Positions 1 to 29,170 of a DNA stretch of 32,785 bases are shown here, piece by piece. This stretch comes from Ruminococcus sp. (lineage in GTDB: Bacteria > Bacillota > Clostridia > Oscillospirales > Ruminococcaceae), in the NCBI GenBank assembly GCA_017543595.1, contig JAFYFU010000082.1, forward strand, positions 1 through 32,785. Direction: 5' to 3'. A program made the translations under genes and the position numbers. The notes under the pieces are model-generated. The model did not search any database and was not told the origin of the DNA. It worked only from the letters and a program-made list of their open reading frames with translations. The stretch's first letter is position 1. Every line of letters starts with the position of its first letter.

Positions 1-6
1 AAAACA

Positions 7-282
7 ATGCGGAGATTTCTGAATCATGAAGTTTTTGAATATGTCAAGGCAAGTTATGATGTTCGTGGTCTTACGGGCGATATAATCGTCATAAGGGACA
101 GTGACGGGTCAATTGAGAACATAATAATAAAAAATACAAGACAAGCCCCGAATTTCAGCTTTGAAGAAAAATACAGAGACTACTGCAACGACAACGACAT
201 TGATTTCGTTCCGAAACAAAGCTTTGACGAGTTAAGTCAGAAAGAACAGAGAAAAATGCTTGAATGGGAAATAGACAACTGA
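7..282 (+). CDS. Hypothetical protein, possibly the C-terminal end of a longer gene
   Basis: I do not recognise this family. The frame is already open at the first base of the window, so the protein may start further left. If ATG 7 is the start, its ribosome binding site lies outside the window. The visible 91 residues are mixed charged and hydrophobic, with no signal peptide and no membrane segment; the last third is acidic and lysine-rich and probably helical. It ends 24 bases before the next gene, which has its own clear Shine-Dalgarno, so it is the first visible member of the EssC operon. A small cytoplasmic accessory protein is possible, but nothing in the sequence fixes a function. Confidence 0.6.
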   Translation: MRRFLNHEVFEYVKASYDVRGLTGDIIVIRDSDGSIENIIIKNTRQAPNFSFEEKYRDYCNDNDIDFVPKQSFDELSQKEQRKMLEWEIDN

Positions 283-306
283 CATTAGTTTTCAGGGAGT
301 GATTTT

Positions 307-810
307 ATGCCCGAAATATGCATATTTACGGGAGAAGATGAAAAATGGCGTGAACAACAGATAATATCATGGAAAGAAAATTTCTGCCGTAACAGTTTCT
401 ATCTCCAAGAGAAAAACGGCTGTCCGATAAAAATAAAATGTGAAAATATTTCTGCTGAAAATATTAAAAAATATTTTGAAAATCTTGATTCTTCCGAATG
501 GTCTGTCTGCATATGCATAGACAAGACAAAAAATTTCAGCCTTATAAAAGATATAATAATAAACAAATGGGAAAACAAACCCGACAGATATCTTTGTCTG
601 CTTGCAACGGATTCATATGACGAATCCGAAAGAACGGAAGAATGGCGAAAAAAAGGAATTTATCTCTGCAATTCCTTTTATGCGGGAAAACAGGAATCCC
701 TTGAAACGCAGATATACCGTTTTCTTTCGGAGTTACACACAAACAGGCGGAAAGCATGGGAAAAATATGAATCTCTTTCACGCCCCGTATCATCATACTA
801 CGAACTTTAA
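307..810 (+). CDS. Hypothetical 167-residue protein of the EssC operon
   Basis: Family not recognised. The start is supported by AGGGAGTGA placed six bases before the ATG. The protein is soluble-looking, with an alternating strand and helix pattern and no signal peptide or transmembrane helix. It contains several cysteines and tryptophans and a C-terminal helical basic stretch near residues 145-155. It lies nine bases upstream of a VWA protein and is clearly cotranscribed with it. From position it is probably a cytoplasmic accessory component of the secretion machine encoded downstream (inference). No catalytic motif was visible, so an adaptor or chaperone role is no better supported than any other. 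Confidence 0.75.
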   Translation: MPEICIFTGEDEKWREQQIISWKENFCRNSFYLQEKNGCPIKIKCENISAENIKKYFENLDSSEWSVCICIDKTKNFSLIKDIIINKWENKPDRYLCLLATDSYDESERTEEWRKKGIYLCNSFYAGKQESLETQIYRFLSELHTNRRKAWEKYESLSRPVSSYYEL

Positions 811-819
811 GAGGATAAT

Positions 820-1425
820 ATGAACAGAAACTTAACGGAAATTATTTTTAAATCCGTAAACAAAGAAACGGGAAAGTCTCTGATTAAAGGCAATTTTCCG
901 TCCCCTCCCGAAAAAAATTCAGATATTTCAATTACTGTAATATTTGACAACAGCCTCAGCATGGAAATATCAGAAAAACTATGCGGAAAAATACAGGACG
1001 GAACAGACAAATTCTGCAAGCTGCTCCCCGAATTTATAGAAATATCTGTAATATCCGTTGTAAATTCGCAGATAAGACTTATCCGTGATTTTCAGGACGA
1101 AAAATCCGAATGGTATCAGCCGTGCAAATCAAAAGGTATGTCGCCGATAAAAGCCTGTATCTGCCTTGCAAATGAGAGAATGTCAGGCAGGGGAGAGGAA
1201 AAATATATTTTTCTGATTTCCGACAAAAAAGGAAACGATGAATATTTTTTCAGCGATGACGATATGAAAATTATTGAAGAAACAGCCGAAAACTGCAAAA
1301 CTGAAAATATTTCCTCAAATCCCGAAAAACTTTCCGAATATTTATACTGGTTTGTAAGGAAATTTTCCGATGACGATTCGGGAGATGACCCCTTTTCTGC
1401 AAAAGATTTTCTTTTTGGTGAGTGA
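820..1425 (+). CDS. Small von Willebrand factor A domain protein (first of two)
   Basis: The central core begins with a hydrophobic strand ending in D43-N-S-L-S47, matching the DxSxS metal-ion-dependent adhesion site that opens VWA domains. It continues with alternating strands and helices to about residue 175 and has an acidic C-terminal tail. There is no signal peptide, so it should act in the cytoplasm. VWA domains bind protein partners through a divalent cation. Next to the EssC-type ATPase it may help assemble or gate the complex, which is inference. Its stop overlaps the region of the next start, suggesting translational coupling to the second VWA protein. The two proteins are only distantly alike outside the motif. 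Confidence 0.75.
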   Translation: MNRNLTEIIFKSVNKETGKSLIKGNFPSPPEKNSDISITVIFDNSLSMEISEKLCGKIQDGTDKFCKLLPEFIEISVISVVNSQIRLIRDFQDEKSEWYQPCKSKGMSPIKACICLANERMSGRGEEKYIFLISDKKGNDEYFFSDDDMKIIEETAENCKTENISSNPEKLSEYLYWFVRKFSDDDSGDDPFSAKDFLFGE

Positions 1426-1427
1426 AT

Positions 1428-2144
1428 ATGAAAAATTTTTCCGAAATAAAAACAGTTTCAGGCAGTCAGCTTATCGACTGCGAAAATATTAAAAAAATTA
1501 AAAATGCCGACAGAATGGCAGATGATGTCCTTCATCTTATGATTCTGCTTGATGTGAGCGAAAGCATGAAAAATTATATTCCGCTCCTCAGAAATATGAC
1601 GGAACAGATTTACGGCTGTAAAAATACGGATTTGTGCATAATCGGAATATGCAGCGACAGAATCGAAATAGTAAAAAATTTTACAGGAAATGCTGAAATT
1701 ATTACCGATATAGAAAAAAATCTTCTGAATATTTTTTTTGAGCATACAGGCGGAAATATTTCCCCTCTGGGGGTTCTTCTTTCGGTTGCGGGCGAAAAAT
1801 TCAGAAAGAGGTGCGGTGCGGATTCCGAAAAGAAAGCAATTATCATATGTTCGGATTTTCTGCCGAATGATTACAGCAAGACAGATGCGTTTGAATCTCC
1901 CGATGAATTTGTTTCGGCTTTTACGAATTTCAGCAGATTTATAACCGAAACAAACACAAATCTTTATACCATACCTTTCGGGGAGGAAAATCCCCTGCAC
2001 CGAAAATGGCTTGATATTCTCAGAGGTCAGGAACAAAATCCCGAAATTTCTTCAATAAAAGAAATTATAGATAAAAGTTTTGTCAAAAATACCCCGAAAG
2101 TTAAAATCAAAAAGCCAAGCCTTGCGGATTTGCTGTCACGATAA
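1428..2144 (+). CDS. Von Willebrand factor A domain protein (second of two)
   Basis: A clear VWA protein: the strand LMILLDVSESM carries the metal-site motif D42-V-S-E-S46. A later segment HTGGNISPLG supplies the threonine/glycine loop typical of these domains, and a strand IIICSDFLPND follows in the position of the third metal-site loop. The lysine-rich C-terminal tail could be a docking peptide. ATG 1428 is preferred because GGTGAG lies just before it; GTG 1422, which overlaps the previous stop, is possible and adds two residues. Seventeen bases separate it from the EssC-type gene, which has a very strong ribosome binding site. A cytoplasmic scaffold role with the ATPase is inferred from context only. 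Confidence 0.8.
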   Translation: MKNFSEIKTVSGSQLIDCENIKKIKNADRMADDVLHLMILLDVSESMKNYIPLLRNMTEQIYGCKNTDLCIIGICSDRIEIVKNFTGNAEIITDIEKNLLNIFFEHTGGNISPLGVLLSVAGEKFRKRCGADSEKKAIIICSDFLPNDYSKTDAFESPDEFVSAFTNFSRFITETNTNLYTIPFGEENPLHRKWLDILRGQEQNPEISSIKEIIDKSFVKNTPKVKIKKPSLADLLSR

Positions 2145-2161
2145 CAAAAAGGAGGAATTTA

Positions 2162-5100
2162 ATGAAAATACAGGATAATGACAAGTACATAGTTTCCCCT
2201 GAATACCACAGCGAAAGAATCCCCGATTCCGAACCCGTAACACTCAAAAAGCCCGAAATCAAGCATAAACCGCCCGAATTAAGGGCTGATACGATAATTA
2301 TTCCGCTTGTTTCGGCAAGTGCATATTATGTTTTCTATAATAAAATTTTGCCTATGCTTACCGAAAATAAAATGTCAAAATATATAGTATATTTTATACT
2401 GGTCGGAAGTGCGATAACTTTTCTGACAACTGTTTTAAGATTCATAATAGGCTGGATTTATTATTTATTTGAGAGAAATTCAAAAATTAAAAAATTAAAA
2501 GATGATTCGGAAAAATTATGTCATGAATCAATTGAAAAGGGAAACAAATATATTGACAATATTTCCGATGTTTATAATTATCAGGAAACAGATGAAAAAT
2601 TATTGTGGTCGCACACGCATAATCACAAAAGTTTTCTGCAAATAAGAATAGGTCACTGCGAAGAAATTCAAAATCCCTTCAGAATATTGAAATGGGAGGG
2701 TAAAGATGACGATTTATCCACGAAATTCAAGGAAATTGCAGATTCTCTCATCGAAAATACCGAACTTTTATGCAGGGAAAATATACCCTATACAATAGAC
2801 ATCAGCGAGCCGACAGCAATAGGAATTGTCAATGCAGACGAAAATTATAAAAAGGCTTTTCTGAATAATATTTTATTTTTACATTCTCCCGCAGACGTTA
2901 CAATTAATATAATCCCCGAAAACAGCATAGAAAAAAATATTCCCAAATCCTATTCAAAGGAAAAAGAAAAAAAGCCCGTTGTATATATTTTTAACGATTA
3001 CGGAAATTACTGTGCGAAAAATCCCATGATTATTGAATTTACAGCACAGCTTGAAAATAAAGCGTCTGTTATTATTTTCAGTGAAAAAGAAACGGATTTT
3101 CCGAGTTTCTGCGATATGGTATATGATGTAAAGGCGGACAGTCTTTCTTTCCGTGATTCAAAACCGCCTGTGAACGTTCTGCATGACATTCCTGATATTT
3201 CAAAGACGGAAAAACAATATTTGACTTTGATTCAGAGCGACATTCCGCACACGGAAAATATCATGAGTACGGATATTCCCGATATGCTGGGGCTTTTTCA
3301 GTTTCACGGCATTGAGGAAACAGACGATATATTAAAACTGCATGAGAAATCCGCATCTGAACGCTATCCCGAAAAACTGAATATTCCAATAGGTATCGGA
3401 AATAACGGCAGGCATATATGCGTTGATATAACAAGTGCGAAACACGGTGTAATGGCAGGCTATACGGGAAGCGGAAAATCGCAGTTTCTCCTCAGTATGA
3501 TGATGTCGCTTTCACTGTTGTATCACCCTGATTTTGTCAAATTTACATTTATTGATTTCAAGGGCGGTTCGTCCTCGGAACAGTTAAAAAATCTTCCGCA
3601 TTTTGCAGGTTCTTTCACGGACGTTGACGGAGAAGAAAAAATAATCCGTGTTATAACCATTCTTGAACAGGAAGGAAAACGCCGTCAGAAAATATTGCAG
3701 AAAGTTTTTGATGACGGAAAAATTGAACAGATGGAAATTTCCGAATATCACAGATATCTCAGAACGCTCTCTCAGGAACAGCTTAAAAATGAGGAAAATC
3801 TGCCCTATCTCCTGATTGTGATTGATGAGTTTACCGAACTTATGAGCAGATACAGCAATTTTTCAAAGGATTTGGAATCTGTTGCAAGACTCGGACGAAG
3901 CAGGGGAATGTTTCTTTTGCTTTGCGCTCAGAGACCTTTCGGTTCGCTTAACGGTCAGATACGCAGTAACCTCGGATATACAATATGCCTTAAAACAAAC
4001 TCCGCAGAGGATTCACGCTCCGCAATAGGAAACGACAAAGCCTATTCACTGGTAAACAAGGGAAGCGGTTATCTGTGGAATGTTGAAACAAGCGAATGTC
4101 TGTATTTTCAGTCGCCGTATTCAATGACAAGAGATGTATTTTCGGGCAGAAGTCAGTTAAATATTACATCACTTACGCTTAAAAATTTTTATCTGAGGAA
4201 AAATTTTGAAAGGGATATGGTTTTCAGCGAGGAACTTCCGCCTGTGCTTAACGGAGATGAAACGCTGATATCATGCTGTGAAAACAGCTTTAATGTCACA
4301 AGAAACAAATGGGGAACTGATTTTGACGGGAAAATCCCTGTCGGAAAAATTGACAACGTTATCATGCAGAAAACAGAAACGGCTTATCTTAATGTTTTTA
4401 ACGAAAATACCATAATATACGGAAATCCCGCAACAGGAAAAACATATTTCTTAAAGACGATTCTTATGAATCTTATAAAAAGCTGTCCGCCTGATATTGC
4501 CGATATTTTTGTGATAAACGCAATGGAACTCAGTTACGGAAGTTTCAAAGATGTTCCGCACATATCATGCGTTATAAATCCAAGCTATGAGGAAGATACT
4601 TTTATTTTCACAAGGTTCACTCTTATTCTTGACGAGGAAATAAAAAGAAGAAAAAAGATTCTGTCGTCCAAAACCATTGAGCAGTACAATTCCGAAAATC
4701 CTAACAACCGCCTTAATTACCTTGTATGTATAATTGACGGGTTTGATTTTCTGCGTGAGGAATATCCGCAGGAATACGAAAAAATTCAGTATTTCATAAA
4801 AAAATCAGGCAAATGCGGTGTGAGTTTCATTGTATCGACAAGAACAAATCTGCCATCTGTAATAAAATCGCAGTTTCCGAATATATTTACATTTTCTTTC
4901 CGTGACGACAGTTACAGGGAATTGCTGACGCTCGGAGCAATAAAAAAACCTTCACCTTTTGCAGGCAGATGTCTTACAAATATTGCAAATCAGGGAGTAG
5001 CCCTTGAAATGCAGGTCATGCTCCCCGTAGGCGTACAGTCGGTTGATGAAGGCTTTGAACGCCTTGTCGATGAGGAAATCTCCTGTCAGCTAAAAGGCAT

Positions 5101-5926
5101 AAAATATAAATATTACAGCTCCGGAAAAAACGTATACAGCGCAAAATTAATTCCCGAAATGCCGACAGACAGAAAAAAATCAATTTCAAATCCCGACTAT
5201 ACACCGCTTAAAGCAGTTGATGATTTTACAAAAGACAAGGAATTTAAAACTTTTCCGCTTCATGCCGTTATGGGTATGCGAACCGACACTGTAAAGCCCT
5301 TTACCGCAGATATGAAACTTTGGAGAATGTTGACAATACTCGGCATACCGAAATCAGGAAAAACCACTGCAATTCATCAGTTAATACAGCCCGTTATCAA
5401 TAAAATAAAAAACGAAAAAGAACTCGGAATAATTATAATTGACAACAGGGAAAACAGCCTCGGTCAAGTATATTCAGTTTTTGAAAATATTAAAGTTTTT
5501 CCGCAGTCAAGGGAAACCGTTGAATTTTTCCACAATGATGAGAATTACAGAAAGATTATTCAGGAGGCACTCGAAAAATACAGAACCGTATTTTTTATAA
5601 TTGAGGACTACCCACGGCTTGTGAGAATCGCAGAAGCCTATGGAATACAGGGATTTGTCAAGGAACTCAACACCTACATAACAAACTGCTATCAGAGCAA
5701 CGAAAATTTCAAATTTATCTTTACGGGAAATATGGGCGACTGCAATCAAAATTCAATGTTCTACAATCATGAAACAAATAACCTTAATCTGTGGATTGTC
5801 GGAGGTGTGCTTTCACAGCTCGGAAGTTATGACCCCGACAGCATATTCGGACGATACCGCACGGCACTTCCCGAACATACAAGCATATACAGGCGCATGG
5901 GCGAAATTATAAGCATTAAATTCTGA
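2162..5926 (+). CDS. essC: EssC-type FtsK/SpoIIIE triple-ATPase of a type VII secretion system
   Basis: Start fixed by AAGGAGG at good spacing. The 1254-residue protein has two membrane segments near residues 44-62 and 73-97. A soluble region with the EssC-like pattern of a tryptophan-containing helix followed by an RIGH strand comes next, then three P-loop ATPase modules. Module 1 has GYTGSGKS with K439 and Walker B IVIDEF (D555, E556), plus the FtsK-like arginine-rich segment LGRSRGM. Module 2 has GNPATGKT (K760) with a weaker Walker B IIDGF. Module 3 has GIPKSGKT (K1067) and IIEDY. This is the order and length of EssC, the motor that drives WXG100-type substrates across the membrane. The tandem FHA domains at the N-terminus of canonical EssC are missing: only about 43 residues precede the first helix. 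The gene symbol is by family resemblance. Confidence 0.88.
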   Translation: MKIQDNDKYIVSPEYHSERIPDSEPVTLKKPEIKHKPPELRADTIIIPLVSASAYYVFYNKILPMLTENKMSKYIVYFILVGSAITFLTTVLRFIIGWIYYLFERNSKIKKLKDDSEKLCHESIEKGNKYIDNISDVYNYQETDEKLLWSHTHNHKSFLQIRIGHCEEIQNPFRILKWEGKDDDLSTKFKEIADSLIENTELLCRENIPYTIDISEPTAIGIVNADENYKKAFLNNILFLHSPADVTINIIPENSIEKNIPKSYSKEKEKKPVVYIFNDYGNYCAKNPMIIEFTAQLENKASVIIFSEKETDFPSFCDMVYDVKADSLSFRDSKPPVNVLHDIPDISKTEKQYLTLIQSDIPHTENIMSTDIPDMLGLFQFHGIEETDDILKLHEKSASERYPEKLNIPIGIGNNGRHICVDITSAKHGVMAGYTGSGKSQFLLSMMMSLSLLYHPDFVKFTFIDFKGGSSSEQLKNLPHFAGSFTDVDGEEKIIRVITILEQEGKRRQKILQKVFDDGKIEQMEISEYHRYLRTLSQEQLKNEENLPYLLIVIDEFTELMSRYSNFSKDLESVARLGRSRGMFLLLCAQRPFGSLNGQIRSNLGYTICLKTNSAEDSRSAIGNDKAYSLVNKGSGYLWNVETSECLYFQSPYSMTRDVFSGRSQLNITSLTLKNFYLRKNFERDMVFSEELPPVLNGDETLISCCENSFNVTRNKWGTDFDGKIPVGKIDNVIMQKTETAYLNVFNENTIIYGNPATGKTYFLKTILMNLIKSCPPDIADIFVINAMELSYGSFKDVPHISCVINPSYEEDTFIFTRFTLILDEEIKRRKKILSSKTIEQYNSENPNNRLNYLVCIIDGFDFLREEYPQEYEKIQYFIKKSGKCGVSFIVSTRTNLPSVIKSQFPNIFTFSFRDDSYRELLTLGAIKKPSPFAGRCLTNIANQGVALEMQVMLPVGVQSVDEGFERLVDEEISCQLKGIKYKYYSSGKNVYSAKLIPEMPTDRKKSISNPDYTPLKAVDDFTKDKEFKTFPLHAVMGMRTDTVKPFTADMKLWRMLTILGIPKSGKTTAIHQLIQPVINKIKNEKELGIIIIDNRENSLGQVYSVFENIKVFPQSRETVEFFHNDENYRKIIQEALEKYRTVFFIIEDYPRLVRIAEAYGIQGFVKELNTYITNCYQSNENFKFIFTGNMGDCNQNSMFYNHETNNLNLWIVGGVLSQLGSYDPDSIFGRYRTALPEHTSIYRRMGEIISIKF

Positions 5927-5939
5927 AAAGGAGAAATTT

Positions 5940-6563
5940 ATGAAATTTTACGAAAAATTCACATTACTTGAATGGAAAGAAACAGCATACACCGATGAAG
6001 TGTTTTTGCCTGAGTCGCCTGACCCGTCATTTATTTCTCTTGCAAAGCGTTTCAATATGGGTCAGAATCTTTTTTCTGTTACCTGTCCGCAGATATGCGA
6101 GGGGACAAATTCCTGCATGATTATCGGAGTTTCCGATGAAAAGATTGAAATTTGCCTTGCTGTACCCGAAAAGCCTGCATTTTTCGCATCAAATCCGAAA
6201 AATTTCCTTGATTCTTCAATAATTGGCTTTATCAGAATGTGTACCGATTTTCTTTTTTCCGAAAATGAAGAATTTGAAGAAGAAATTACAATTGACTCAG
6301 ATGAAAAACCGCCGAGAGAATTTTATCATGACTTTTGGCGTTCAAAATATGGAGAAAAAAGATTAAGAATTGAAAAAATAAATAATTTTATCGGGGATAA
6401 ATTTCCATCGGTAGTTCTTGCTTTTTCGTCATCTGACGGGGGAGTGTGGAGCAGTTTTCTTATGCGTGATTCTTCGGGCGGGTATTCTTCAAATATTTCA
6501 AAACAGACGGCAACGCATTTCCGCCAGAGTTTTTTTAGGCTGCTCCCCTTGATATTTTCATAA
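5940..6563 (+). CDS. Hypothetical protein following the EssC-type gene
   Basis: Family not recognised. It starts 13 bases after the EssC-type gene behind AAAAGGAG, so it is the last visible gene of that operon. The 207 residues show no signal peptide or membrane helix. There is an acidic stretch around residues 105-125, with runs of glutamate, and a mixed alpha/beta C-terminal half with a serine- and glycine-rich turn. Soluble accessory proteins of this size are common next to secretion ATPases, so a chaperone, adaptor or immunity role is possible; none is shown by the sequence. A weak promoter for the next operon lies across its last codons. Confidence 0.75.
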   Translation: MKFYEKFTLLEWKETAYTDEVFLPESPDPSFISLAKRFNMGQNLFSVTCPQICEGTNSCMIIGVSDEKIEICLAVPEKPAFFASNPKNFLDSSIIGFIRMCTDFLFSENEEFEEEITIDSDEKPPREFYHDFWRSKYGEKRLRIEKINNFIGDKFPSVVLAFSSSDGGVWSSFLMRDSSGGYSSNISKQTATHFRQSFFRLLPLIFS

Positions 6564-6577
6564 AAATATGTTATTAT
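6549..6577 (+). promoter_or_regulatory. Possible sigma-A promoter for lipoprotein-cotH-sortase
   Basis: TTGATA and TATTAT are separated by 17 bases. The box pair overlaps the end of the upstream CDS and lies about 20 bases before the lipoprotein start. One mismatch in each box makes it plausible but not certain; readthrough from the EssC operon is the alternative, because no terminator is visible between them. Confidence 0.45.
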
Positions 6578-6598
6578 ATTTTCAGAGGGGGTATATTT

Positions 6599-7516
6599 AT
6601 GACCAAAAAAAGAATTTATTTTGCTTTATCGGCGGTTATTGTCTTTGGGCTTGCAGGCTGCGGAACAGAACAGCCAACTGCTGAAAGCAGTCAAAGCAGT
6701 TCAAATATTGAACTCCAAACAACCGAAACGACAACTACCGAAACTACGACAACGGCCACAGAATCCACGACAACGACTGCATCAACAACCACAGAGGCTG
6801 CGACAACAACCACATCAACAACTACCGAGACTACGACAACAACTATACTTACAACCACCGAACCTGTGACAACAACTGTATTGACAACTACCGAGCCTGT
6901 AACAACGGCTGCGCCCGTGGCAACCGAACCAACAGTCACTGAACCGCCGATTCCCGAAATTGTTCCTCAGAACAATAATGACTGGAAATCAGCATACAGG
7001 GAAGTCCTTAACGCTTACAAAAATTCGTCCGATTATGTAAATACGTCCGGATACTACATTGGTTCAGGTTGGGATTTGCAGGATTTGGACTTTGACGGCA
7101 TACCCGAACTTCTCATATCGGAAGGAGAATATCATGCGGCAAGCGTTATATATTATTACTTTGAAAACGGCGAGGCACACCCGATTATTGATGATGCGGA
7201 CGGCTATCAGGTTCATTACGGAGCATACGGAACTGTCTTTGTCTGCAACGAAGAACATCTTTTAAGCTGTATGAATATGGGTATGGGTTATTCGTTCACA
7301 GGTATAATAAAATATGAAAACCATAAGTTTATAAATGATATATGGTCGGCTACCGAGGATTCAGGCGCAGTAGGCGAGGAAAACGCAACATATACGGTAA
7401 ACGGTATGAATGTGACAAAAGCAGAGTATGACACGGCAATCAGTCAATATAATTCAAAAAACTGGGTGAGTGCAGGACAGAGATACAGCTTTGACGATTT
7501 TTCAGCACTTAATTAA
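6599..7516 (+). CDS. Threonine-rich surface lipoprotein
   Basis: The first 20 residues form a lipoprotein signal with lipobox L-A-G-C, so C21 should be lipidated and anchored outside the membrane. A low-complexity linker made almost only of threonine, glutamate, alanine and valine follows to about residue 115, which should act as an extended, probably glycosylated stalk. The C-terminal domain of about 190 residues contains DLQDLDFDGIPELL, a repeat-like acidic motif seen in many secreted Ruminococcus and Clostridium proteins and suggestive of calcium binding. The ribosome site GAGGGGG is strong. It sits directly before a dockerin-CotH protein and a sortase, so a cell-surface role linked to them is likely. 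Its exact function is unknown. Confidence 0.85.
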   Translation: MTKKRIYFALSAVIVFGLAGCGTEQPTAESSQSSSNIELQTTETTTTETTTTATESTTTTASTTTEAATTTTSTTTETTTTTILTTTEPVTTTVLTTTEPVTTAAPVATEPTVTEPPIPEIVPQNNNDWKSAYREVLNAYKNSSDYVNTSGYYIGSGWDLQDLDFDGIPELLISEGEYHAASVIYYYFENGEAHPIIDDADGYQVHYGAYGTVFVCNEEHLLSCMNMGMGYSFTGIIKYENHKFINDIWSATEDSGAVGEENATYTVNGMNVTKAEYDTAISQYNSKNWVSAGQRYSFDDFSALN

Positions 7517-7530
7517 GGGAGTATTTAATA

Positions 7531-9567
7531 ATGAGCAAAAATTTCAAATATAAATTCCTGATTTCGGGAATTTCCGCACTTCTTGCACTTTCATCGGTAA
7601 ATACAACTGCCTTTGCTGAGTCATATCAGCCATATGAAACGGCTTTGAATCTGATTCAGTCAATCAAAAATGAAAAAGACTCAGATGAAGAAAAATCGGG
7701 AGTTTATGAAAATATTCCCGTTTCGGATTTTGAAGTCGGAAATCTTTCTCCCGGCATTGACACAGAATTTGATTTTACCGACTGGTGGTACAGCGAATGG
7801 GACGACTGCCGTTATATTTTTCTGCCTGTTACCGCAAACCGCAAAAATTTGCAGATAACCTATTCCGCAGAAGATATGCTTTATCTCAACGGCAGACCCG
7901 TAAAATCAGGGGAACTTACTTCAATTCTGAGTGAATCAGATACTTTTCAGGTAAGAGTCGGAAAAAAAGACTGCGGAACTCTTAAAGTAATGCAGTCTAA
8001 TCTCGGCTGTATATATCTTTCAACAACGAACGGAGGAGTTGAAGCTCTCGATAAGGACAGGAGTGCCATACAGGGCGGAGATATTCTGATGCTCAATTCC
8101 GAAGGCGATATTGAATACAGCGGACCAATGGAAAAATTTTCATCTCACGGAAATTCTTCATGGGATTACAGCGATAAAAAGCCGTATAACCTCAAACTGC
8201 CGAAAAAAGAAAACCTCTACGGCATGGGCAAAGGTAAAAAATGGGTACTGCTTTCAAATTATCTTGACCATTCCATGCTCAGAAACAAGCTTACGGAGGA
8301 AATGTGCAGGGCGTGCGGAATGGAATTTGTAATGGATTCCGTGTTCCTTGACTTATATGCAGACGGTTTATACCGTGGAACTTATCAGCTTTATGAAAAG
8401 ATACAGGTAAACGAAAGCCGTGTCAATATAGATGATTTGGAGAAAAAGACCGAAAAACTCAATGACCTTGAACTTGACGAATACCCGCACGAAGTTTCAG
8501 GGGCGGAAAGCCTTGGTGAATATATCGAAAACAGCTGTAAATACTATGATATACCAAATAATCCCAAAGATATAACAGGCGGTTATCTCTTGCAGTTTCA
8601 GTTGTGGAACAGATACGGAGAAAAGGCTGACAGCGGATTTGTAACTTCAAGGGGACAGGCAATTTCCATTGACGGTCCCGAATATGCCTCAAAGGAACAG
8701 GTTGAATATATACGTTCCTTTGTTCAGGATATGGAGGACGCTGTTTATTCCGAAACGGGATACAACGGAAAGGGCAAACATTACAGCGAATATCTTGATG
8801 TTGATTCCTTTATTGTTGCATATCTTGTTCAGGAAATAAGCGAAAACGTTGACGCAGGTTCTTCAAGTTTCTATTTCTGGAAAGATTCAGACCTCACGGG
8901 TGACGGCAAAATTCATTTCAGTCCTGCATGGGATTTTGATTTCAGCTACAATAATTTCAGGGCATCACGCAGAAATTCCGAAGGAAAAGTCGGCTACTCC
9001 TCTTTAAGCAACAATATGTTTGCAATATGTTTCCCGATAAACGGCTATGGAGTCAGCGGACGACCTACTTTCGGTGTGAACTGGATTGGTCAGCTTTATA
9101 ATTACAAGGAAATTGAAGCAAGAGCCGCAAAAATTTATTTACAGCGTTTTAAGCCTTTTCTCGACAATCTGACAGGCGGACAAACTCCCTATCTCAGACA
9201 GCTTGCTCAGGATATTCTTCCCTCTGCGGAAATGAGCAACGCACGCTGGCATACATACGGCGGAAAGGAATACTGCGTATTCGGTTCGTCAAGCGGAGAG
9301 GATTTTATGGGTTCTGTTGATATTCTCCGTGAATTTATAAACAAGCGCAGTAATTGGCTTGCTGAACACTGGTCAGAATATCTTTCTGTTGACGGTGATG
9401 TGGACGATAACGGAATAACCGAAATTTCCGATGCTGTTTTGTTGCAGAAATGGCTTCTCAACGCTTCCGATTCACATATCGGAAACACGGATTCTGCGGA
9501 CTTGAACAAAGACGGAAAAATTGATATCTTTGACATGATAGAACTGAAAAAATTATTGTTCAAATAA
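7531..9567 (+). CDS. Secreted CotH-family kinase with C-terminal dockerin
   Basis: A signal peptide of about 30 residues ends at AFA. The body matches the CotH family (spore coat protein H kinases). It has a KPYNLKLPKKENL segment, a lysine- and asparagine-rich strand WVLLSNYLD, a YLVQEISENVDAG helix, and the metal-binding DFD of SPAWDFDFSYNN. The last 65 residues form a dockerin with two calcium loops, DVDDNGITEISD and DLNKDGKIDIFD, so it should attach to a cohesin on a scaffoldin. CotH modules with dockerins are known in Ruminococcus cellulosomes, where their role is not settled; protein phosphorylation or a structural role are options. It is flanked by a lipoprotein 14 bases upstream and a sortase 4 bases downstream. 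Confidence 0.9.
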   Translation: MSKNFKYKFLISGISALLALSSVNTTAFAESYQPYETALNLIQSIKNEKDSDEEKSGVYENIPVSDFEVGNLSPGIDTEFDFTDWWYSEWDDCRYIFLPVTANRKNLQITYSAEDMLYLNGRPVKSGELTSILSESDTFQVRVGKKDCGTLKVMQSNLGCIYLSTTNGGVEALDKDRSAIQGGDILMLNSEGDIEYSGPMEKFSSHGNSSWDYSDKKPYNLKLPKKENLYGMGKGKKWVLLSNYLDHSMLRNKLTEEMCRACGMEFVMDSVFLDLYADGLYRGTYQLYEKIQVNESRVNIDDLEKKTEKLNDLELDEYPHEVSGAESLGEYIENSCKYYDIPNNPKDITGGYLLQFQLWNRYGEKADSGFVTSRGQAISIDGPEYASKEQVEYIRSFVQDMEDAVYSETGYNGKGKHYSEYLDVDSFIVAYLVQEISENVDAGSSSFYFWKDSDLTGDGKIHFSPAWDFDFSYNNFRASRRNSEGKVGYSSLSNNMFAICFPINGYGVSGRPTFGVNWIGQLYNYKEIEARAAKIYLQRFKPFLDNLTGGQTPYLRQLAQDILPSAEMSNARWHTYGGKEYCVFGSSSGEDFMGSVDILREFINKRSNWLAEHWSEYLSVDGDVDDNGITEISDAVLLQKWLLNASDSHIGNTDSADLNKDGKIDIFDMIELKKLLFK

Positions 9568-9571
9568 GCTT

Positions 9572-10129
9572 ATGAAAAATAAAATTGAAAACAATTCAAA
9601 TCCTGATTTAAAACAACGGATTATTTTTGTAACCGGAATTATTTTCATTGCTGCGGGATTGTCTGTTTTGGGTTTTTTCGGTGTCAGGAAAATTTACAGG
9701 GAGTATCGGAAATTTCAATTAATGCGTGAAAATGTCGTTGTGGAAATACCGAGCGTAAATATAAAAGCTCCCGTTCTTGAAGGAACTGAAAACGAAATAC
9801 TTTCACAGGCAACAGGGCATTTTAACAATACGGGTGATGTCGGAGCAGGAAATTACTGTATCGCAGGTCACAGCAGTACAATATACAAGGAATATTTCAA
9901 CAACCTGAAAAAAGTCAGCACAGGAGATGAAATTTTTCTTTACGATAAGCAAAAAAATAAATATGTGTACGTAATTGATGATATTTTTATCGTAGAGCCG
10001 AACGAAACTTGGATATTACAGGATTTTGATGATGTAAGAGTAACTTTGGTGACCTGTACAGATGACGGAACACAAAGACTTACAGTCGTGGGAAAATTAT
10101 CCGACAATAAAAAACAGTCGGAAAAATAA
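9572..10129 (+). CDS. Membrane sortase (class D/E-like transpeptidase)
   Basis: One N-terminal transmembrane anchor near residues 17-38 is followed by an extracellular sortase domain. The catalytic triad is complete: H100 in AGHS, C162 in TLVTCT and R169 in QRLTV. Sortases cleave a C-terminal sorting motif and join the protein to the peptidoglycan or to a pilin. The short domain (185 residues in total) and the TLVTC signature fit class D or E better than the long class A or C forms. No LPxTG-type substrate is encoded in the window, so the substrate is elsewhere; a scaffoldin is a natural candidate (inference). The start is only four bases after the CotH gene with no strong ribosome site, implying translational coupling. 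Confidence 0.88.
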   Translation: MKNKIENNSNPDLKQRIIFVTGIIFIAAGLSVLGFFGVRKIYREYRKFQLMRENVVVEIPSVNIKAPVLEGTENEILSQATGHFNNTGDVGAGNYCIAGHSSTIYKEYFNNLKKVSTGDEIFLYDKQKNKYVYVIDDIFIVEPNETWILQDFDDVRVTLVTCTDDGTQRLTVVGKLSDNKKQSEK

Positions 10130-10136
10130 TTTTTTT
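10098..10136 (+). terminator. Probable terminator of the lipoprotein-cotH-sortase operon
   Basis: TCCGAC and GTCGGA can form a short stem over the last codons of the sortase gene, followed by a run of T from 10130. The stem is short and the loop long, so it is a modest terminator. Confidence 0.45.
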
Positions 10137-10137
10137 C

Positions 10138-10166
10138 TTGACATTTAGGATATACAATGATATAAT
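10138..10166 (+). promoter_or_regulatory. Consensus sigma-A promoter of the queuosine operon
   Basis: A perfect TTGACA (10138-10143) and a perfect TATAAT (10161-10166) are separated by 17 bases. Transcription should start near 10173, leaving about 160 bases of leader before queD. A promoter this strong usually needs downstream control, which the leader appears to supply. Confidence 0.92.
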
Positions 10167-10186
10167 ATTATCTGTAAGTTTTTTAC

Positions 10187-10314
10187 CGACAGTTCGTTTG
10201 CGCTATCCTGTCGTAAAACAAAACCAAGGCTGGCTATAAAAAATAACGGCATAAAAAGCCGTTTGTTTTCGTACGTGTTTTTAGCTGTGCCTTTAAAAAA
10301 AGGCGCAGTTTTTT
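10187..10314 (+). promoter_or_regulatory. preQ1-I-like riboswitch with antiterminator and terminator
   Basis: The leader opens with stem CGACAG/CTGTCG (10187-10192 with 10208-10213). Its 15-base loop ends in C10207, the place where type I preQ1 aptamers use a cytosine to read the ligand. The A-rich tail 10214-10229, ending in CCAAGG, resembles the aptamer tail and can pair as a pseudoknot (10197-10200 with 10225-10228). A small hairpin follows at 10245-10263. The bases just after the aptamer (10228-10242) can pair with 10277-10291, which are the 5' half of the terminator at 10285-10314. Ligand binding should sequester GG 10228-10229, favour termination and switch the que genes off. The match to the preQ1-I class is by eye; class III was considered. 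Confidence 0.68.
10285..10314 (+). terminator. Intrinsic terminator in the que leader (attenuator)
   Basis: A ten-pair stem, CTGTGCCTTT with AAAGGCGCAG, has a four-A loop and is followed by six T. It stands about 17 bases before the queD start, between promoter and first gene. It can therefore only work as a conditional terminator for the riboswitch-like leader. Confidence 0.9.
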
Positions 10315-10331
10315 ATTGAAAGGGTGATAAT

Positions 10332-10751
10332 ATGTACTGTCTTAAAACATCAGCGGCTTTCGACAGCGCACATTTCCTCAGCGGATATAACGGAAAATGC
10401 GCCAATATTCACGGTCATCACTGGATAATTGAAGTTGTTGTCCGTTCGGAAAATTTGCAGGACAGCGGTGAAAAGCGTGGCATGATTTTAGATTTCGGAG
10501 ATTTGAAAAAAACTGTCAGGTCACTTGCGGACAGTTTCGACCATGTACTTATATATGAAAAAAATTCACTGAAAGCCAAAACAATTGAGGCTCTTGAATC
10601 GGAAAATTTCAGGTTAAAGGAAGTTTCGTTCAGACCTACTGCCGAAAATTTTGCAAAATATTTTTTTGATGTTCTCAAATCATCGGATTTGCCCGTCAAA
10701 AACGTTACAGTCTATGAAACCCCCGAAAACTGCGCTGTATATGAGGAGTGA
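10332..10751 (+). CDS. queD: 6-carboxy-5,6,7,8-tetrahydropterin synthase QueD
   Basis: It converts dihydroneopterin triphosphate to 6-carboxytetrahydropterin, the second step of queuosine and preQ0 synthesis. The 139-residue length is normal. Zinc ligands H14, H27 and H29 and catalytic C23 are visible in SAHFLSGYNGKCANIHGHH. A conserved FDH follows near residue 70, and a glutamate in ETPEN near the C-terminus is expected to bind the pterin. Ribosome site GAAAGGGTG precedes the ATG. It is the first gene after the riboswitch-like leader and overlaps the start region of queE, so regulation by preQ1 is expected for the whole operon. The family is PTPS-like, but the gene order makes QueD the clear choice. 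Confidence 0.95.
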   Translation: MYCLKTSAAFDSAHFLSGYNGKCANIHGHHWIIEVVVRSENLQDSGEKRGMILDFGDLKKTVRSLADSFDHVLIYEKNSLKAKTIEALESENFRLKEVSFRPTAENFAKYFFDVLKSSDLPVKNVTVYETPENCAVYEE

Positions 10752-10756
10752 TAAAT

Positions 10757-11416
10757 ATGTTTCCCGTAGTTGAAAAATTTGTAAGCATTAACGGAGAGGG
10801 CGCACACGCAGGCGAAATATCTGCCTTTATTCGTTTCAGGAAATGTAATCTCAACTGCGCTTACTGCGATACACGCTGGGCTAATTCAGACAACGCAGAA
10901 GCTGAAATGATGTCCGCCGAGGAACTCGCAGAATGGGTAAAAGAAAGCAATGTTAAAAATGTTACTCTTACGGGCGGAGAACCCCTCTTGCAGTCAGATA
11001 TATCCGAACTTACGGATATTCTCATAAAAAACGGCATAAGAACCGAAATCGAAACAAACGGCAGTATATTAATTAAAAATCTTTCGGAACGTGAACTCAG
11101 ACCCGTTTTTACAATGGACTATAAATGCCCGTCAAGCAATATGGAAAAACATATGTGCCTTGAAAATTTCAAGTATTTACAGTGCCATGATACTGTTAAA
11201 TTTGTTGTCGGAAATCATGAGGATATGCTCCGTGCGGAAGAAATAATTAAAAAATATTCTCTCGGTTCGGTCTGCCATGTTTATTTCAGCCCTGTTTTCG
11301 GGAGCATTGACCCTGCGGAAATGGTAAATTTTACAATAGAAAGACATATGAATGATGTAAGGATTCAGCTCCAAATGCATAAATTTATCTGGAATCCTTT
11401 AAAGAGGGGAGTGTAA
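10757..11416 (+). CDS. queE: 7-carboxy-7-deazaguanine synthase QueE (radical SAM)
   Basis: A radical SAM enzyme that rearranges 6-carboxytetrahydropterin into 7-carboxy-7-deazaguanine. The iron-sulfur motif CxxxCxxC is C30-NLN-C34-AY-C37. The TGGEP motif for SAM binding is in TLTGGEPLL, and a substrate-side INGEG segment lies near residues 11-15. The 219-residue length fits the compact Gram-positive QueE type. ATG 10757 is chosen because GAGGAG lies eight bases before it; GTG 10748 would add three residues and overlap the queD stop. The next gene starts one base after the stop region, consistent with a single transcript. Confidence 0.95.
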
Positions 11417-11417
11417 A

Positions 11418-11978
11418 ATGGATAAAAAAGCCATTGAATATCATGTTCTCGGATTGATTAAGGCTATCGGAGAAGACCCCGAAAGAGAGGGTCTGCGTGA
11501 AACTCCCCGCAGAGTTGCAAATATGCTCGAAGAAGTCCTTGAAGGTATAAATTATACGAATCACGAAATAGCCGAAATGTTCGGGAAAACTTTCACGGCG
11601 GATTACGGCGAATCCGAAAATACTGTCGTAATGAAAGATATAACTGTTTTCAGTTACTGCGAACATCACCTTGCGCTTATGTATGATATGACGGTGAATG
11701 TCGCATACATTCCGCATGGTAAAGTCCTCGGTCTCAGCAAAATCGCCCGTATATGCGATATGGCGGCTAAACGTCTGCAATTGCAGGAGCGTCTTGGCAG
11801 AGATATTGCCGAAATAATTTCAGAGGCAGCGGATACCCCCGATGTTGGCGTGAAAATTCTCGGCTCTCACAGTTGTATGACGGCAAGAGGCATAAAAAAT
11901 GCATCATCTCGCACCGAAACACGCACCTATACGGGAGAATTTAAAAACAGACAGGATTTACAGAAACTTTTAGATTAA
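11418..11978 (+). CDS. folE: GTP cyclohydrolase I FolE
   Basis: It opens the purine ring of GTP to give dihydroneopterin triphosphate, the feedstock for QueD and also for folate. Motif SYCEHHLA gives zinc ligands C81 and H84, and C153 in [10 protein letters not shown] is the third ligand, so this is the zinc-dependent FolE1 type. Length 186 is normal. GAGGGGAG precedes the ATG closely after queE. Its place inside the que operon suggests that it is dedicated to queuosine. Whether a second folE for folate exists elsewhere cannot be seen here. Confidence 0.96.
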
Positions 11979-12010
11979 TTATAATTTTCTGATTTAAATA
12001 AGGAGATATT

Positions 12011-12688
12011 ATGAAAGCACTTGTTTTATTCAGCGGCGGAGTTGACAGCACAACCTGTCTTGCTATCGCTGTAAAAAAATACGGTGCAGGAGAAGTTCTT
12101 GCACTTTCAATAAGCTACGGTCAGAAACATTCCCGTGAAGTAATTGCCGCAAAAGAATTAGCGGAATTTTACGGCGTTGAACATAAAATACTTGATTTGT
12201 CCGTAATATTTGAAGGCTCTGACTGCTCACTGCTTGTAAATTCAGATAAAGAAATTCCAAAGGAAAGCTACGCAGAACAGCTTGAAAAAAACAACGGCTC
12301 TCCCGTTTCAACATATGTGCCGTTCAGAAACGGCTTATTCCTCGCATCTGCGGCAAGTATAGCACTTTCAAGGGGATGTACGGAAATATATTACGGCGCA
12401 CATTCGGACGATGCCGCAGGAAATGCTTATCCCGATTGCAGTAAGGATTTTAACGATTCGATAAACCGTGCAATATTTATAGGGAGCGGAAATGTGTTGA
12501 ATGTTGTTGCCCCGTTTATCGGCATGAATAAAGCTGATGTTGTAAAAACAGGTCTTGAATTGAATGTTCCCTATGAGAAAACATGGAGCTGTTATGAGGG
12601 AAATGAAAAACCTTGCGGTGTCTGCGGAACGTGCCGTGACAGAATAGCCGCTTTCAGGGCTAACGGCATACAAGACCCTGTTTTATAA
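12011..12688 (+). CDS. queC: 7-cyano-7-deazaguanine synthase QueC
   Basis: An ATP-dependent ligase that turns 7-carboxy-7-deazaguanine and ammonia into preQ0. The PP-loop motif is FSGGVDST near residues 7-14. The C-terminal zinc site is CYEGNEKPCGVCGTC with four cysteines. The segment YYGAHSDDAAGNAYPDC is typical of the family, and the 225-residue length is normal. The start follows AAGGAG. It is the fourth gene of the operon, and the next gene, queF, is about 160 bases away with a GC-rich hairpin element between. Confidence 0.96.
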   Translation: MKALVLFSGGVDSTTCLAIAVKKYGAGEVLALSISYGQKHSREVIAAKELAEFYGVEHKILDLSVIFEGSDCSLLVNSDKEIPKESYAEQLEKNNGSPVSTYVPFRNGLFLASAASIALSRGCTEIYYGAHSDDAAGNAYPDCSKDFNDSINRAIFIGSGNVLNVVAPFIGMNKADVVKTGLELNVPYEKTWSCYEGNEKPCGVCGTCRDRIAAFRANGIQDPVL

Positions 12689-12710
12689 ATTTGGATTGTT
12701 AAGAAAAATT

Positions 12711-12823
12711 GTGCTTTGCGCTGTATAGGGTGGCTTGGGGGGAATAAGCCGCCTCTTGTGCTGAAAGTGAACGAAGCGAAGCGCAGTGAACGAAAGCACA
12801 AGCCCCAAAAGGCGGCTCCCCCC
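12711..12823. repeat. GC-rich palindromic element between queC and queF
   Basis: In an otherwise A+T-rich stretch lies a strongly folded block. The arms are GGGGGG 12737-12742 with CCCCCC 12818-12823, AGCCGCC 12747-12753 with GGCGGCT 12811-12817, and CTTGTGCT 12755-12762 with AGCACAAG 12795-12802. Competing pairs also exist, namely 12711-12722 with parts of 12780-12799, and GGCTT 12732-12736 with AAGCC 12746-12750. The central loop carries the short repeat AGTGAACGAA twice. No T-run follows, so it is not a normal terminator. It resembles a REP or MITE-like palindromic unit inserted in the operon, or an RNA switch ahead of queF. Confidence 0.7.
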
Positions 12824-12845
12824 ATTTAAAATAAGGAGTATGAAA

Positions 12846-13343
12846 ATGACAGGAAGAAATCAAAATGAAAAGGGAGATATTTCTCTCCTGGGAAACCGTA
12901 ATACTAAATATCCTATGGACTATGCGCCCGAATTGCTGGAAACTTTCCCGAACAAACACCCCGACAATGACTATTTTGTTAAGTTCAACTGCCCCGAATT
13001 TACGTCTTTGTGTCCCATAACGGGTCAGCCCGATTTTGCAACGATATATATATCATATATACCTGATGAGCGTATGGTTGAAAGCAAATCACTTAAATTA
13101 TATCTTTTCTCTTTCAGAAATCATGGGGATTTCCATGAGGACTGCGTTAATATAATCATGAAAGATTTGATTAAACTTATGAACCCGAAATATATTGAAG
13201 TATGGGGAAAATTTCTCCCAAGGGGCGGACTTTCAATAGACCCCTACTGCAATTACGGCAGACCAGATACAAAATGGGAAAAACTCGCATGGGACAGGCT
13301 TGCAAACCATGATATGTACCCTGAAACAGTAAACAACAGATAA
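12846..13343 (+). CDS. queF: NADPH-dependent preQ0 reductase QueF
   Basis: It reduces the nitrile of preQ0 to the aminomethyl group of preQ1, the last free-base step before insertion into tRNA. It is the short bacterial (B. subtilis-like) form, 165 residues. Catalytic C56 lies in [12 protein letters not shown] with D63, the E79-[13 protein letters not shown]/substrate motif is present, and FHED (H97, E98) follows. ATG 12846 is preferred because AAGGAG ends seven bases before it; ATG 12840 is too close to that site, and the frame open upstream is within the palindromic element. It completes the GTP to preQ1 route within one operon. Confidence 0.95.
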
Positions 13344-18583: not shown

Positions 18584-18704
18584 AATAGAACACTCCTCAT
18601 TTAAAATCGTCAGATTTTGCCTTTTTAAAAACAAAGTCTTTGATACATGATAAAATCCCAATAAACAGGATAATTTTGTATTTCGCATTTCTGATTCCGC
18701 ATTT

Positions 18705-18733
18705 ATTATACACTGCTCACAAAAATTTTACAA
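18705..18733 (-). promoter_or_regulatory. Probable promoter of the GH5 gene
   Basis: On the minus strand TTGTAA (18728-18733) and TATAAT (18705-18710) are 17 bases apart. It leaves a leader of about 115 bases before the ATG at 18583. The -35 box is weak, as in promoters that need an activator; the neighbouring AraC-type regulator is a candidate. Confidence 0.62.
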
Positions 18734-18775
18734 TGGGAAAACAGGCAGAATTTAATGCATATTGTACACAGATAA

Positions 18776-18806
18776 TAAAAATCAGCATACAGACCGTATG
18801 CTGATT
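18776..18806 (-). terminator. Terminator of the GH30 gene
   Basis: An eleven-pair perfect stem, AATCAGCATAC with GTATGCTGATT, carries a five-base loop. It is followed on the minus strand by TTTTTATT. It lies between the GH30 stop and the GH5 promoter, so the two hydrolases are separate transcripts. Confidence 0.9.
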
Positions 18807-18834
18807 GTAAAATATTTTAAATTAAGTTTTGCTG

Positions 18835-27133: not shown

Positions 27134-27153
27134 ATTATCACCCTCAGTTAATT

Positions 27154-29049: not shown

Positions 29050-29170
29050 CTTTATCACCTCTGTATAATAATATTCAAAAACTCCTCACGTTCTGACGCA
29101 GGGAGCTTTTACATACCTTAAATTTTACAATGCCATTATGCTGATTCTCCGAAAAGGCATACTGACCTAT
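29050..29170 (-). promoter_or_regulatory. Structured leader with attenuator-like hairpin
   Basis: The transcript expected from the promoter at 29177-29205 has about 120 untranslated bases. It can form an ATGCC/GGCAT hairpin early on. A second stem, CTCCCTGCG with CGTGAGGAG (arms 29097-29105 and 29082-29090, two mismatches), is followed by five T at 29077-29081, like a terminator, and only then the ribosome site. This is the design of a conditional leader, but it matches no riboswitch class I know. Confidence 0.5.

What the first reader, a model, noticed from the sequence alone, without database searches (positions are those of the whole stretch)
307..6563. EssC-type secretion ATPase without FHA domains, in an operon with two VWA proteins
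The sequence shows a membrane protein with three P-loop ATPases (K439, K760, K1067) but almost no N-terminus before the first membrane helix, where canonical EssC carries two FHA domains. Upstream are two small proteins with VWA metal-site motifs and one unknown; downstream is another unknown. VWA proteins are not among the standard type VIIb parts (EsxA, EsaA, EssA, EsaB, EssB, EssC). This may be a distinct subtype in which VWA proteins replace FHA-based docking. The core partners would have to lie left of the window.
Basis: partly seen in the sequence, partly recalled or inferred. Interest (0 to 1): 0.78.

Follow-up and report, generated by a model that had tools for sequence, protein, structure and literature searches.

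The report
Divergent vWA-linked type VII secretion operon
A relative of Ruminococcus carries a very divergent version of a type VII protein-export machine whose motor lacks the usual docking domains and sits beside two small metal-site (vWA) proteins; a machine with that mix of parts is already described, but this one resembles it only distantly and may also be tied to the cell-surface fibre-degrading system.

Summary
ORF 2162-5926 is a membrane ATPase with three P-loops (K439, K760, K1067), no FHA domains and T7SS-type homology (NCBIfam EssC 341 bits; FtsK 47). Two small upstream proteins carry vWA metal-site motifs; only the second has profile support. The window is a whole contig, so its left neighbours are cut off. 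A second contig of the same genome (C112, 5751 b) holds a WXG100-like pair, a putative membrane pseudokinase with C-type lectin and dockerin domains, and the start of a large effector-like gene; it is probably the missing left half (inferred). FHA-less EssC plus vWA protein plus membrane kinase is already described as T7SSc (Garrett 2024, PMC11217815). The five best BLAST matches in hand are T7SSc ATPases (24-27% identity), but no T7SSc accessory profile matches, and the tree does not resolve its place. I call it a divergent, T7SSc-like variant, not a proven T7SSc. vWA proteins replacing FHA docking is untested. The newest element is a dockerin and lectin on a T7SS-linked membrane protein, which hints at coupling to the cell surface or cellulosome.

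The parts
1..282 (+). 3' end of a gene cut by the contig start (93 aa, open at 5'); possibly the end of an effector-type gene (inferred)
   Evidence: open frame that runs off the contig start. No family. Contig C112 of the same genome ends inside a large + strand effector-like ORF. The two pieces were not joined.
307..810 (+). Unknown 167 aa protein; alternating strand/helix order in a low-confidence model
   Evidence: No family. AlphaFold2 on the single sequence: pLDDT 51, pTM 0.52. Foldseek best E 0.011 with TM 0.23, not meaningful.
820..1425 (+). Small vWA-like protein 1 (201 aa): D43-S45-S47, S108, D135
   Evidence: Motif only. Weak local similarity to vWA protein 2 over the later metal-site elements (E 0.036). 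No profile hit.
1422..2144 (+). Small vWA protein 2 (240 aa): D44-S46-S48, S114, D145
   Evidence: Pfam VWA_2 E 0.0024, under cut-off; hhalign E 7.7e-4 over 37-147.
2162..5926 (+). FHA-less EssC/TsxC-type secretion ATPase, 1254 aa, two hydrophobic stretches, three P-loops
5940..6563 (+). Unknown 207 aa protein, in the position where several T7SS loci carry an EspG-like protein
   Evidence: No family; no match to T7SSc TscG or a wider EspG-like set; model unusable, pLDDT 35.
6599..7516 (+). Putative lipoprotein with Thr/Glu-rich linker; membership in the operon uncertain
   Evidence: judged from the sequence; promoter-like site 6549-6577 just ahead (10 of 12 matches).
7531..9567 (+). CotH kinase-like protein with type I dockerin; same direction, association uncertain
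   Evidence: Pfam CotH 1.9e-31, Dockerin_1 1.6e-7.
9572..10129 (+). Sortase; last gene of the run, association uncertain
   Evidence: Pfam Sortase 4.4e-28; a 12-of-12 promoter-like site follows at 10138-10166.

Best explanation
The window holds the right half of a divergent type VII secretion operon. Its ATPase is an FHA-less EssC that sits in the membrane and, by analogy with EssC/EccC, drives export of helical-hairpin substrates. The left half is most likely on contig C112: a promoter, two WXG100-like proteins, a membrane protein with an inactive kinase-like cytosolic part plus an outside C-type lectin and dockerin, a small helical protein, and the 5' part of a large effector-like gene. The two vWA proteins have no membrane stretch and are probably cytosolic adaptors that link the pseudokinase and substrates to the ATPase, doing the docking that FHA domains do in T7SSb. 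Shown: sequence anatomy, ATPase homology, absence of FHA, vWA domain in the second small protein, presence of the C112 genes. Inferred: that the two contigs adjoin, kinase fold, topology, secretion, the adaptor role. Likelihoods: T7SS-type export about 0.85; C112 is the left half about 0.75; vWA proteins as docking adaptors about 0.4.
For: EssC NCBIfam 341 bits against FtsK 47; best PDB sequence match is YukB, E 2.3e-40. The five best BLAST matches among the EssC in hand are FHA-less T7SSc proteins beside a vWA gene. Own genome: FtsK/SpoIIIE domains at E up to 0.001 only here and in one other frame of 872 aa; WXG100 matches under E 0.01 only on C112. Those two C112 proteins match WXG100-type proteins at T7SS loci, best E 1.1e-5 and 2.2e-4. 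The C112 effector-like ORF shares residues 156-273 with a protein about 6.4 kb (midpoints) from EssC in genome G232 of the same genus (E 8.6e-12). Terminator-like 1531-1559 and promoter-like site 1588-1616 on C112 mark a start. Both contigs end inside + strand ORFs.
Against: The ATPase scores under the EssC curated cut-off (341 against 778) and sits on a very long branch of unresolved position. Only five of the 11 T7SSc ATPases lead the BLAST list; the other six score 231 to 151 bits, among FHA-bearing ones, and FHA-bearing L103 (235) ties with the fifth. The C112 WXG100 matches are under the Pfam cut-off, and at E up to 1 that family rings in 13 of 14 control genomes, over the cut-off in only one. 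No YukC or YukD match in the own genome; EsaA and EssA were not sought. No accessory protein matches a T7SSc profile. Adjacency of the contigs is not proven; a search for a shared end with the first 200 bases found none. The left 1.5 kb of C112 differs in GC (45.3%).
Confidence: 0.68

Rival explanations
1. It is a fast-evolving member of T7SSc, with TscB, TscF and TscG lost, unrecognisable or in the assembly gap.
For: FHA-less ATPase; five best BLAST matches are T7SSc; with actinobacterial rows left out the window falls beside the T7SSc clade (support 70); vWA protein and membrane kinase-like protein present.
Against: No accessory protein matches the T7SSc profiles. Placement unresolved: with three actinobacterial rows in, holding it with T7SSc costs 0.65 log units, p-AU 0.264, but other placements are not rejected at 5% either. 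The kinase active site is not conserved in the C112 protein (sequence).
Confidence: 0.3
2. FHA-less independently: a T7SSb-like system of this bacterial family that lost its FHA domains and recruited vWA proteins on its own.
For: FHA-bearing EssC with vWA neighbours occur in the same genus and family; Garrett 2024 reports that FHA presence does not track the ATPase tree (passage seen). A clade with L078, L050 and L051 of the same family is not rejected (p-AU 0.233).
Against: The four best BLAST matches are FHA-less T7SSc proteins.
Confidence: 0.25
3. A defence cassette like the vWA-flanked EssC/WXG100 cassette of CoCoNuT type III-A.
For: Two vWA genes, an EssC-like ATPase and two WXG100 proteins occur in both (PMC11090510, passages).
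Against: Published CoCoNuT ATPases lack membrane helices and have only the D2 site active; here hydrophobic stretches and the D1 motifs are present. No McrBC-type hit among the 26 window and C112 proteins scanned. Both vWA genes here lie before the ATPase.
Confidence: 0.08
4. Decayed or non-functional remnant, or a bin error that mixes contigs.
For: Long branch, core parts not found, contig ends inside genes.
Against: Long open frames with three P-loops; contamination given as 0.12; GC of the two T7 stretches alike, 36.9 and 37.7%.
Confidence: 0.08

Closest known systems
T7SSc (Garrett, Higginson and Palmer 2024, PMC11217815)
   Same: FHA-less EssC/TscC, a cytosolic vWA protein, a membrane protein with kinase-like domain, WXG100 protein; the best BLAST matches of the ATPase are T7SSc.
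   Different: 24-27% ATPase identity for those five; two vWA genes, not one; kinase-like protein lacks catalytic residues (HKY in place of HRD) and carries lectin and dockerin; no TscB, TscF or TscG match; two WXG100-like proteins.
T7SSb with EssB/YukC pseudokinase (PMC9600267)
   Same: Cytosolic pseudokinase, one membrane helix, outside domain; EssC ATPase.
   Different: T7SSb ATPase has FHA domains that bind the pseudokinase; here none. No YukC or YukD profile match.
CoCoNuT type III-A EssC/WXG100 extension (PMC11090510)
   Same: Two vWA genes with an EssC-like ATPase and two WXG100 proteins.
   Different: No membrane helices and D1 inactive there; embedded in a restriction operon.
Same-genus FHA-bearing T7SS with TerY-like vWA, phosphatase-like and kinase genes (L073, L241)
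   Same: vWA protein near EssC, same genus.
   Different: FHA-type N-terminus present; vWA of another type; ATPase about 32% identical over residues 264-656.

Membership tests
T7SSc | TscC: EssC-type ATPase without FHA | tested here: met
   24-27% identity to the five best T7SSc ATPases.
T7SSc | ATPase groups with T7SSc in a tree | tested here: inconclusive
   Long branch; beside T7SSc with support 70 when actinobacteria are left out, beside actinobacteria with support 51 when three are kept; T7SSh-like, T7SSg-like and others not rejected at 5% (these two labels are mine, from neighbouring genes).
T7SSc | TscE: cytosolic vWA protein | tested here: inconclusive
   vWA domain in the protein at 1422, motif in the one at 820; no match to the TscE profile.
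T7SSc | TscD: membrane kinase with conserved active site | tested here: not met
   Candidate on C112 has one hydrophobic stretch and weak kinase similarity (Pfam E 0.0025, below cut-off) but HKY in place of HRD and no DFG (read); no TscD match.
T7SSc | TscF: PPM phosphatase | tested here: inconclusive
   No match among frames of window 1-10400 and C112; gap between contigs and rest of the genome not searched for it.
T7SSc | TscB: YukD-like ubiquitin fold | tested here: inconclusive
   Own genome, PF08817: 0 matches at E up to 1, but Pfam also finds nothing in the TscB of L219 at E 0.01, so that test can miss it; profile of 7 TscB: none convincing in window 1-10400 and C112.
T7SSc | TscG: EspG-like chaperone | tested here: inconclusive
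   No sequence match; structure model of the protein at 5940 unusable.
T7SSc | TscA: WXG100 protein | tested here: inconclusive
   Two WXG100-like proteins on C112, all under curated cut-offs; linkage to the window inferred.
T7SSb | Two FHA domains on EssC | tested here: not met
T7SSb | EssB/YukC | tested here: not met
   PF10140 in own genome: 0 matches at E up to 1.
T7SSb | EsaA and EssA | not tested
CoCoNuT type III-A extension | EssC-like ATPase without membrane helices, D1 inactive, beside McrBC-type core | tested here: not met
   Hydrophobic stretches and D1 motifs present; no such neighbours among 26 proteins scanned.
FtsK or conjugation ATPase | Closer to FtsK/TraB than to EssC | tested here: not met
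   EssC 341 bits, FtsK 47, TraB 25.

The most novel reading that the evidence does not exclude
A type VII secretion machine that is physically coupled to the cellulosome or other surface scaffold: a membrane pseudokinase with an outside C-type lectin and a dockerin anchors the exporter to cohesin scaffolds or to plant or microbial glycans, while two vWA proteins replace FHA docking on the inside. This would be a T7SS subtype of its own in fibre-degrading ruminococci, used against competitors that sit on the same fibre. Cohesins were not searched for.
Probability: 0.2. Interest if true: 0.75.

Novelty: new variant of a known kind. Interest (0 to 1): 0.45.

Why it matters
It extends the FHA-less, vWA-linked T7SS layout, described as T7SSc, to a fibre-degrading relative of Ruminococcus in a form too divergent for accessory-gene profiles. 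It makes a clear question testable: what docks the pseudokinase to the ATPase when FHA is absent. The dockerin on a T7SS-linked membrane protein hints at a link between a contact-dependent secretion system and the cellulosome; I know of no report of such a link, and a full-text search for both terms listed two general reviews, which I did not open.

Tried and rejected
Shared contig end by DNA search: none. Close relatives of the ATPase: none in 197 family genomes, 125 genus genomes (which takes in those), 391 class genomes, 394 order genomes, or plasmids; the samples overlap. Short segments of up to 39% identity over about 250 residues were the best. Peptide patterns from the window protein alone gave 19 and 23 stretches in genome and viral contigs, none confirmed. 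vWA protein 2 in plasmids: no match. Both vWA proteins against the PDB by sequence: nothing. T7SSc profiles against frames of window 1-10400 and C112: nothing convincing. Structures of 307 and 5940: too poor to use. EspG-like set of eight against 5940: no. One of five clade tests did not finish. My first motif scan missed TerY-type vWA (DxTxS) and was widened after L241 was seen. The full-pattern shuffles used patterns fitted after seeing the sequences, and the first pattern missed vWA protein 2, so I give them no weight. The vWA count is 22 of 131 EssC loci; the 131 include the window and at least five places fetched twice, and the profile was built from 14 of the 22. Possible riboswitch ahead of the queD-like gene: no Rfam match at gathering level.
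Full report
What is in the window. The window is an entire contig, C62 of a draft genome of 2.41 Mb in 127 contigs, so nothing to the left of base 1 can be read from it. A genome of the same genus (G278) shares a place with a record titled Ruminococcus sp. from goat rectum, so it is a Ruminococcus relative. On the + strand lie, close together, a gene cut by the contig start (1-282), an unknown (307-810), two small vWA-like proteins (820-1425, 1422-2144), a 1254 aa ATPase (2162-5926) and an unknown (5940-6563). A lipoprotein-like protein, a CotH-dockerin protein and a sortase follow in the same direction; whether these three belong is uncertain, because a promoter-like site lies at 6549-6577.

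The ATPase. It scores 341 bits against NCBIfam EssC (curated cut-off 778) and 47 against FtsK; the best solved-structure match is B. subtilis YukB at E 2.3e-40. P-loops K439, K760 and K1067 are as stated; Walker B with a glutamate is seen in the first domain; hydrophobic stretches begin near residues 45 and 78. The FHA-sized N-terminal blocks of other EssC proteins are missing in the alignment. It is therefore an FHA-less EssC-type ATPase.

The vWA proteins. The protein at 1422 has a vWA domain over residues 37-147 (Pfam E 0.0024 below cut-off; hhalign E 7.7e-4; hmmsearch E 0.058). The protein at 820 has the metal-site residues in the same order and similar spacing but no profile support. Neither has a membrane stretch or a PDB sequence relative. 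The T7SSc protein TscE of L219 also stays under the Pfam cut-off, so low scores are not unusual for this group.

The probable left half. In the same genome, WXG100 hits under E 0.01 occur only on contig C112 (5751 b): two adjacent small proteins, both under the curated cut-off (a third hit elsewhere has E 0.27, and at E up to 1 the family rings in 13 of 14 control genomes). They match WXG100-type proteins at T7SS loci of other genomes, best E 1.1e-5 and 2.2e-4. C112 reads: a dockerin-bearing beta-galactosidase-like end, a terminator-like site (1531-1559), a promoter-like site with extended -10 (1588-1616), the two WXG100-like genes, a 499 aa protein, an 87 aa protein that looks helical, and a large ORF of at least 522 aa that runs off the end. 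The 499 aa protein has weak similarity to the kinase catalytic loop (Pfam E 0.0025; PDB best E 0.022, most of the 60 listed hits kinases), reads HKY where kinases have HRD and lacks DFG (read), then one membrane stretch near 245, a C-type lectin domain (E 4.8e-9) and a type I dockerin (E 3e-9). That is the layout of EssB/YukC and TscD with different outside domains. The large ORF shares residues 156-273 with a protein near EssC (midpoints about 6.4 kb apart) in genome G232 of the same genus (E 8.6e-12). Both contigs end inside ORFs of the same direction; GC of the two stretches is alike (36.9 and 37.7%), while the left 1.5 kb of C112 has 45.3%.

Relatives. Other ATPases reach at most 39% identity, over about 250 residues of the first ATPase domain, 30-31% over some 555 columns of the two first domains, and 23-27% over long BLAST matches. 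Genomes with a match: 4 of 125 of the genus at E up to 1e-44 including its own, 5 of 391 of the class at 1e-45 including its own, 3 of 394 of the order at 1e-47 including its own. Peptide-pattern scans with the window protein alone confirmed nothing. In 148 Paenibacillaceae genomes 50 had a match at E up to 1e-22, and 20 neighbourhoods were fetched. Eleven of these have most or all of the T7SSc parts: TscE in 11, TscD 11, TscG 10, TscF 9, TscB 7, found by profile within the 20 kb taken.

Known systems. Garrett, Higginson and Palmer 2024 (PMC11217815; abstract, methods, sections on discovery, T7SSc, T7SSg and substrates, and passages of the rest) define T7SSc by an FHA-less ATPase, vWA protein, membrane kinase, PPM phosphatase, ubiquitin-like protein, EspG-like protein and WXG100. 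The five best BLAST matches of the window ATPase among the EssC in hand are T7SSc (274, 265, 249, 236, 235 bits), just ahead of FHA-bearing L103 and L078 (235, 233); the other six T7SSc score 231, 214, 203, 202, 165 and 151, mixed with FHA-bearing ones. The tree does not resolve its place: its end branch is 3.85 to 4.6 long; it lies beside actinobacterial rows in one tree (support 51), beside T7SSc in another (support 70), and clade tests reject neither T7SSc (p 0.26), T7SSh-like (0.12 and 0.28) nor, at 5%, T7SSg-like rows (0.059 and 0.10) (the labels h and g are mine, from neighbouring genes). No window or C112 protein matches a T7SSc accessory profile, and the genome has no YukD or YukC match, though the YukD test would also miss the TscB of L219. 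I therefore call it T7SSc-like in layout and do not file it as T7SSc.

Mechanism. In B. subtilis the FHA region of YukB binds the pseudokinase domain of YukC (PMC9600267, passages). The window ATPase has no FHA, yet the genome seems to have a membrane pseudokinase and two cytosolic vWA proteins in the set. Against a simple replacement: vWA proteins also occur beside FHA-bearing EssC. In 131 EssC loci (window included, at least five places twice) 22 have a vWA protein by profile, all on the strand of EssC. Six proteins from Clostridia loci, chosen for the motif, all fuse vWA and FHA domains, one Paenibacillaceae-labelled protein fuses kinase and vWA, and two genomes of the window's own genus carry a TerY-like vWA with kinase and a phosphatase-like protein near an FHA-bearing EssC (the phosphatase is judged from its sequence, no Pfam hit). 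vWA thus looks like a frequent T7SS companion.

Verdict. Papers searched: dockerin with type VII secretion, two reviews, listing only; Ruminococcus with EssC and type VII secretion, one paper on LXG toxins, listing only; type VII secretion system with Ruminococc and gut, 25 papers of which 12 were listed, none on this by title. Library limits apply: open-licence PubMed Central only.

Noticed in passing
L083:1590-3335, L114:9519-11195, L123:13966-15333, L131:19235-20986, L134:15983-17497, L136:15459-17198: Proteins near FHA-bearing EssC genes in Clostridia that fuse a vWA domain to a C-terminal FHA domain, six of the six tested above both Pfam cut-offs. Possibly a general T7SS component; I did not see it in the parts of PMC11217815 that I read.
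   Followed up: partly
L073:13709-16323 and L241:9614-12228: TerY-like vWA, phosphatase-like and kinase genes beside an FHA-bearing EssC in two genomes of the window's genus.
   Followed up: partly
L103:18008-19705: Ser/Thr kinase fused to a vWA domain at a Paenibacillaceae-labelled EssC locus with FHA-type N-terminus.
   Followed up: no
G000:C112 (L100) 2405-3904: Membrane pseudokinase-like protein with C-type lectin and dockerin.
   Followed up: partly
L052, L054, L056 to L062, L064, L066, L067: Other genomes of the genus and family carry EssC-like ATPases split in two ORFs of about 1040-1090 and 510-590 aa, like EccCa and EccCb.
   Followed up: no
window 10138-13343: Queuosine-type gene cluster (QueD-like, QueF, others judged from sequence). 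A perfect promoter-like site and a terminator-like stem lie ahead of the first gene; no Rfam family reaches its gathering score there.
   Followed up: partly
window 17150-21420: Glycoside hydrolases of families 5 and 30, both with a dockerin by a local profile, one also by Pfam.
   Followed up: no
window 29606-32179: Bacterial Pnkp-type RNA repair protein: kinase, phosphoesterase and ligase domains.
   Followed up: no
window 26186-29058: ADP-ribosylglycohydrolase family protein beside a 634 aa protein without Pfam family.
   Followed up: no
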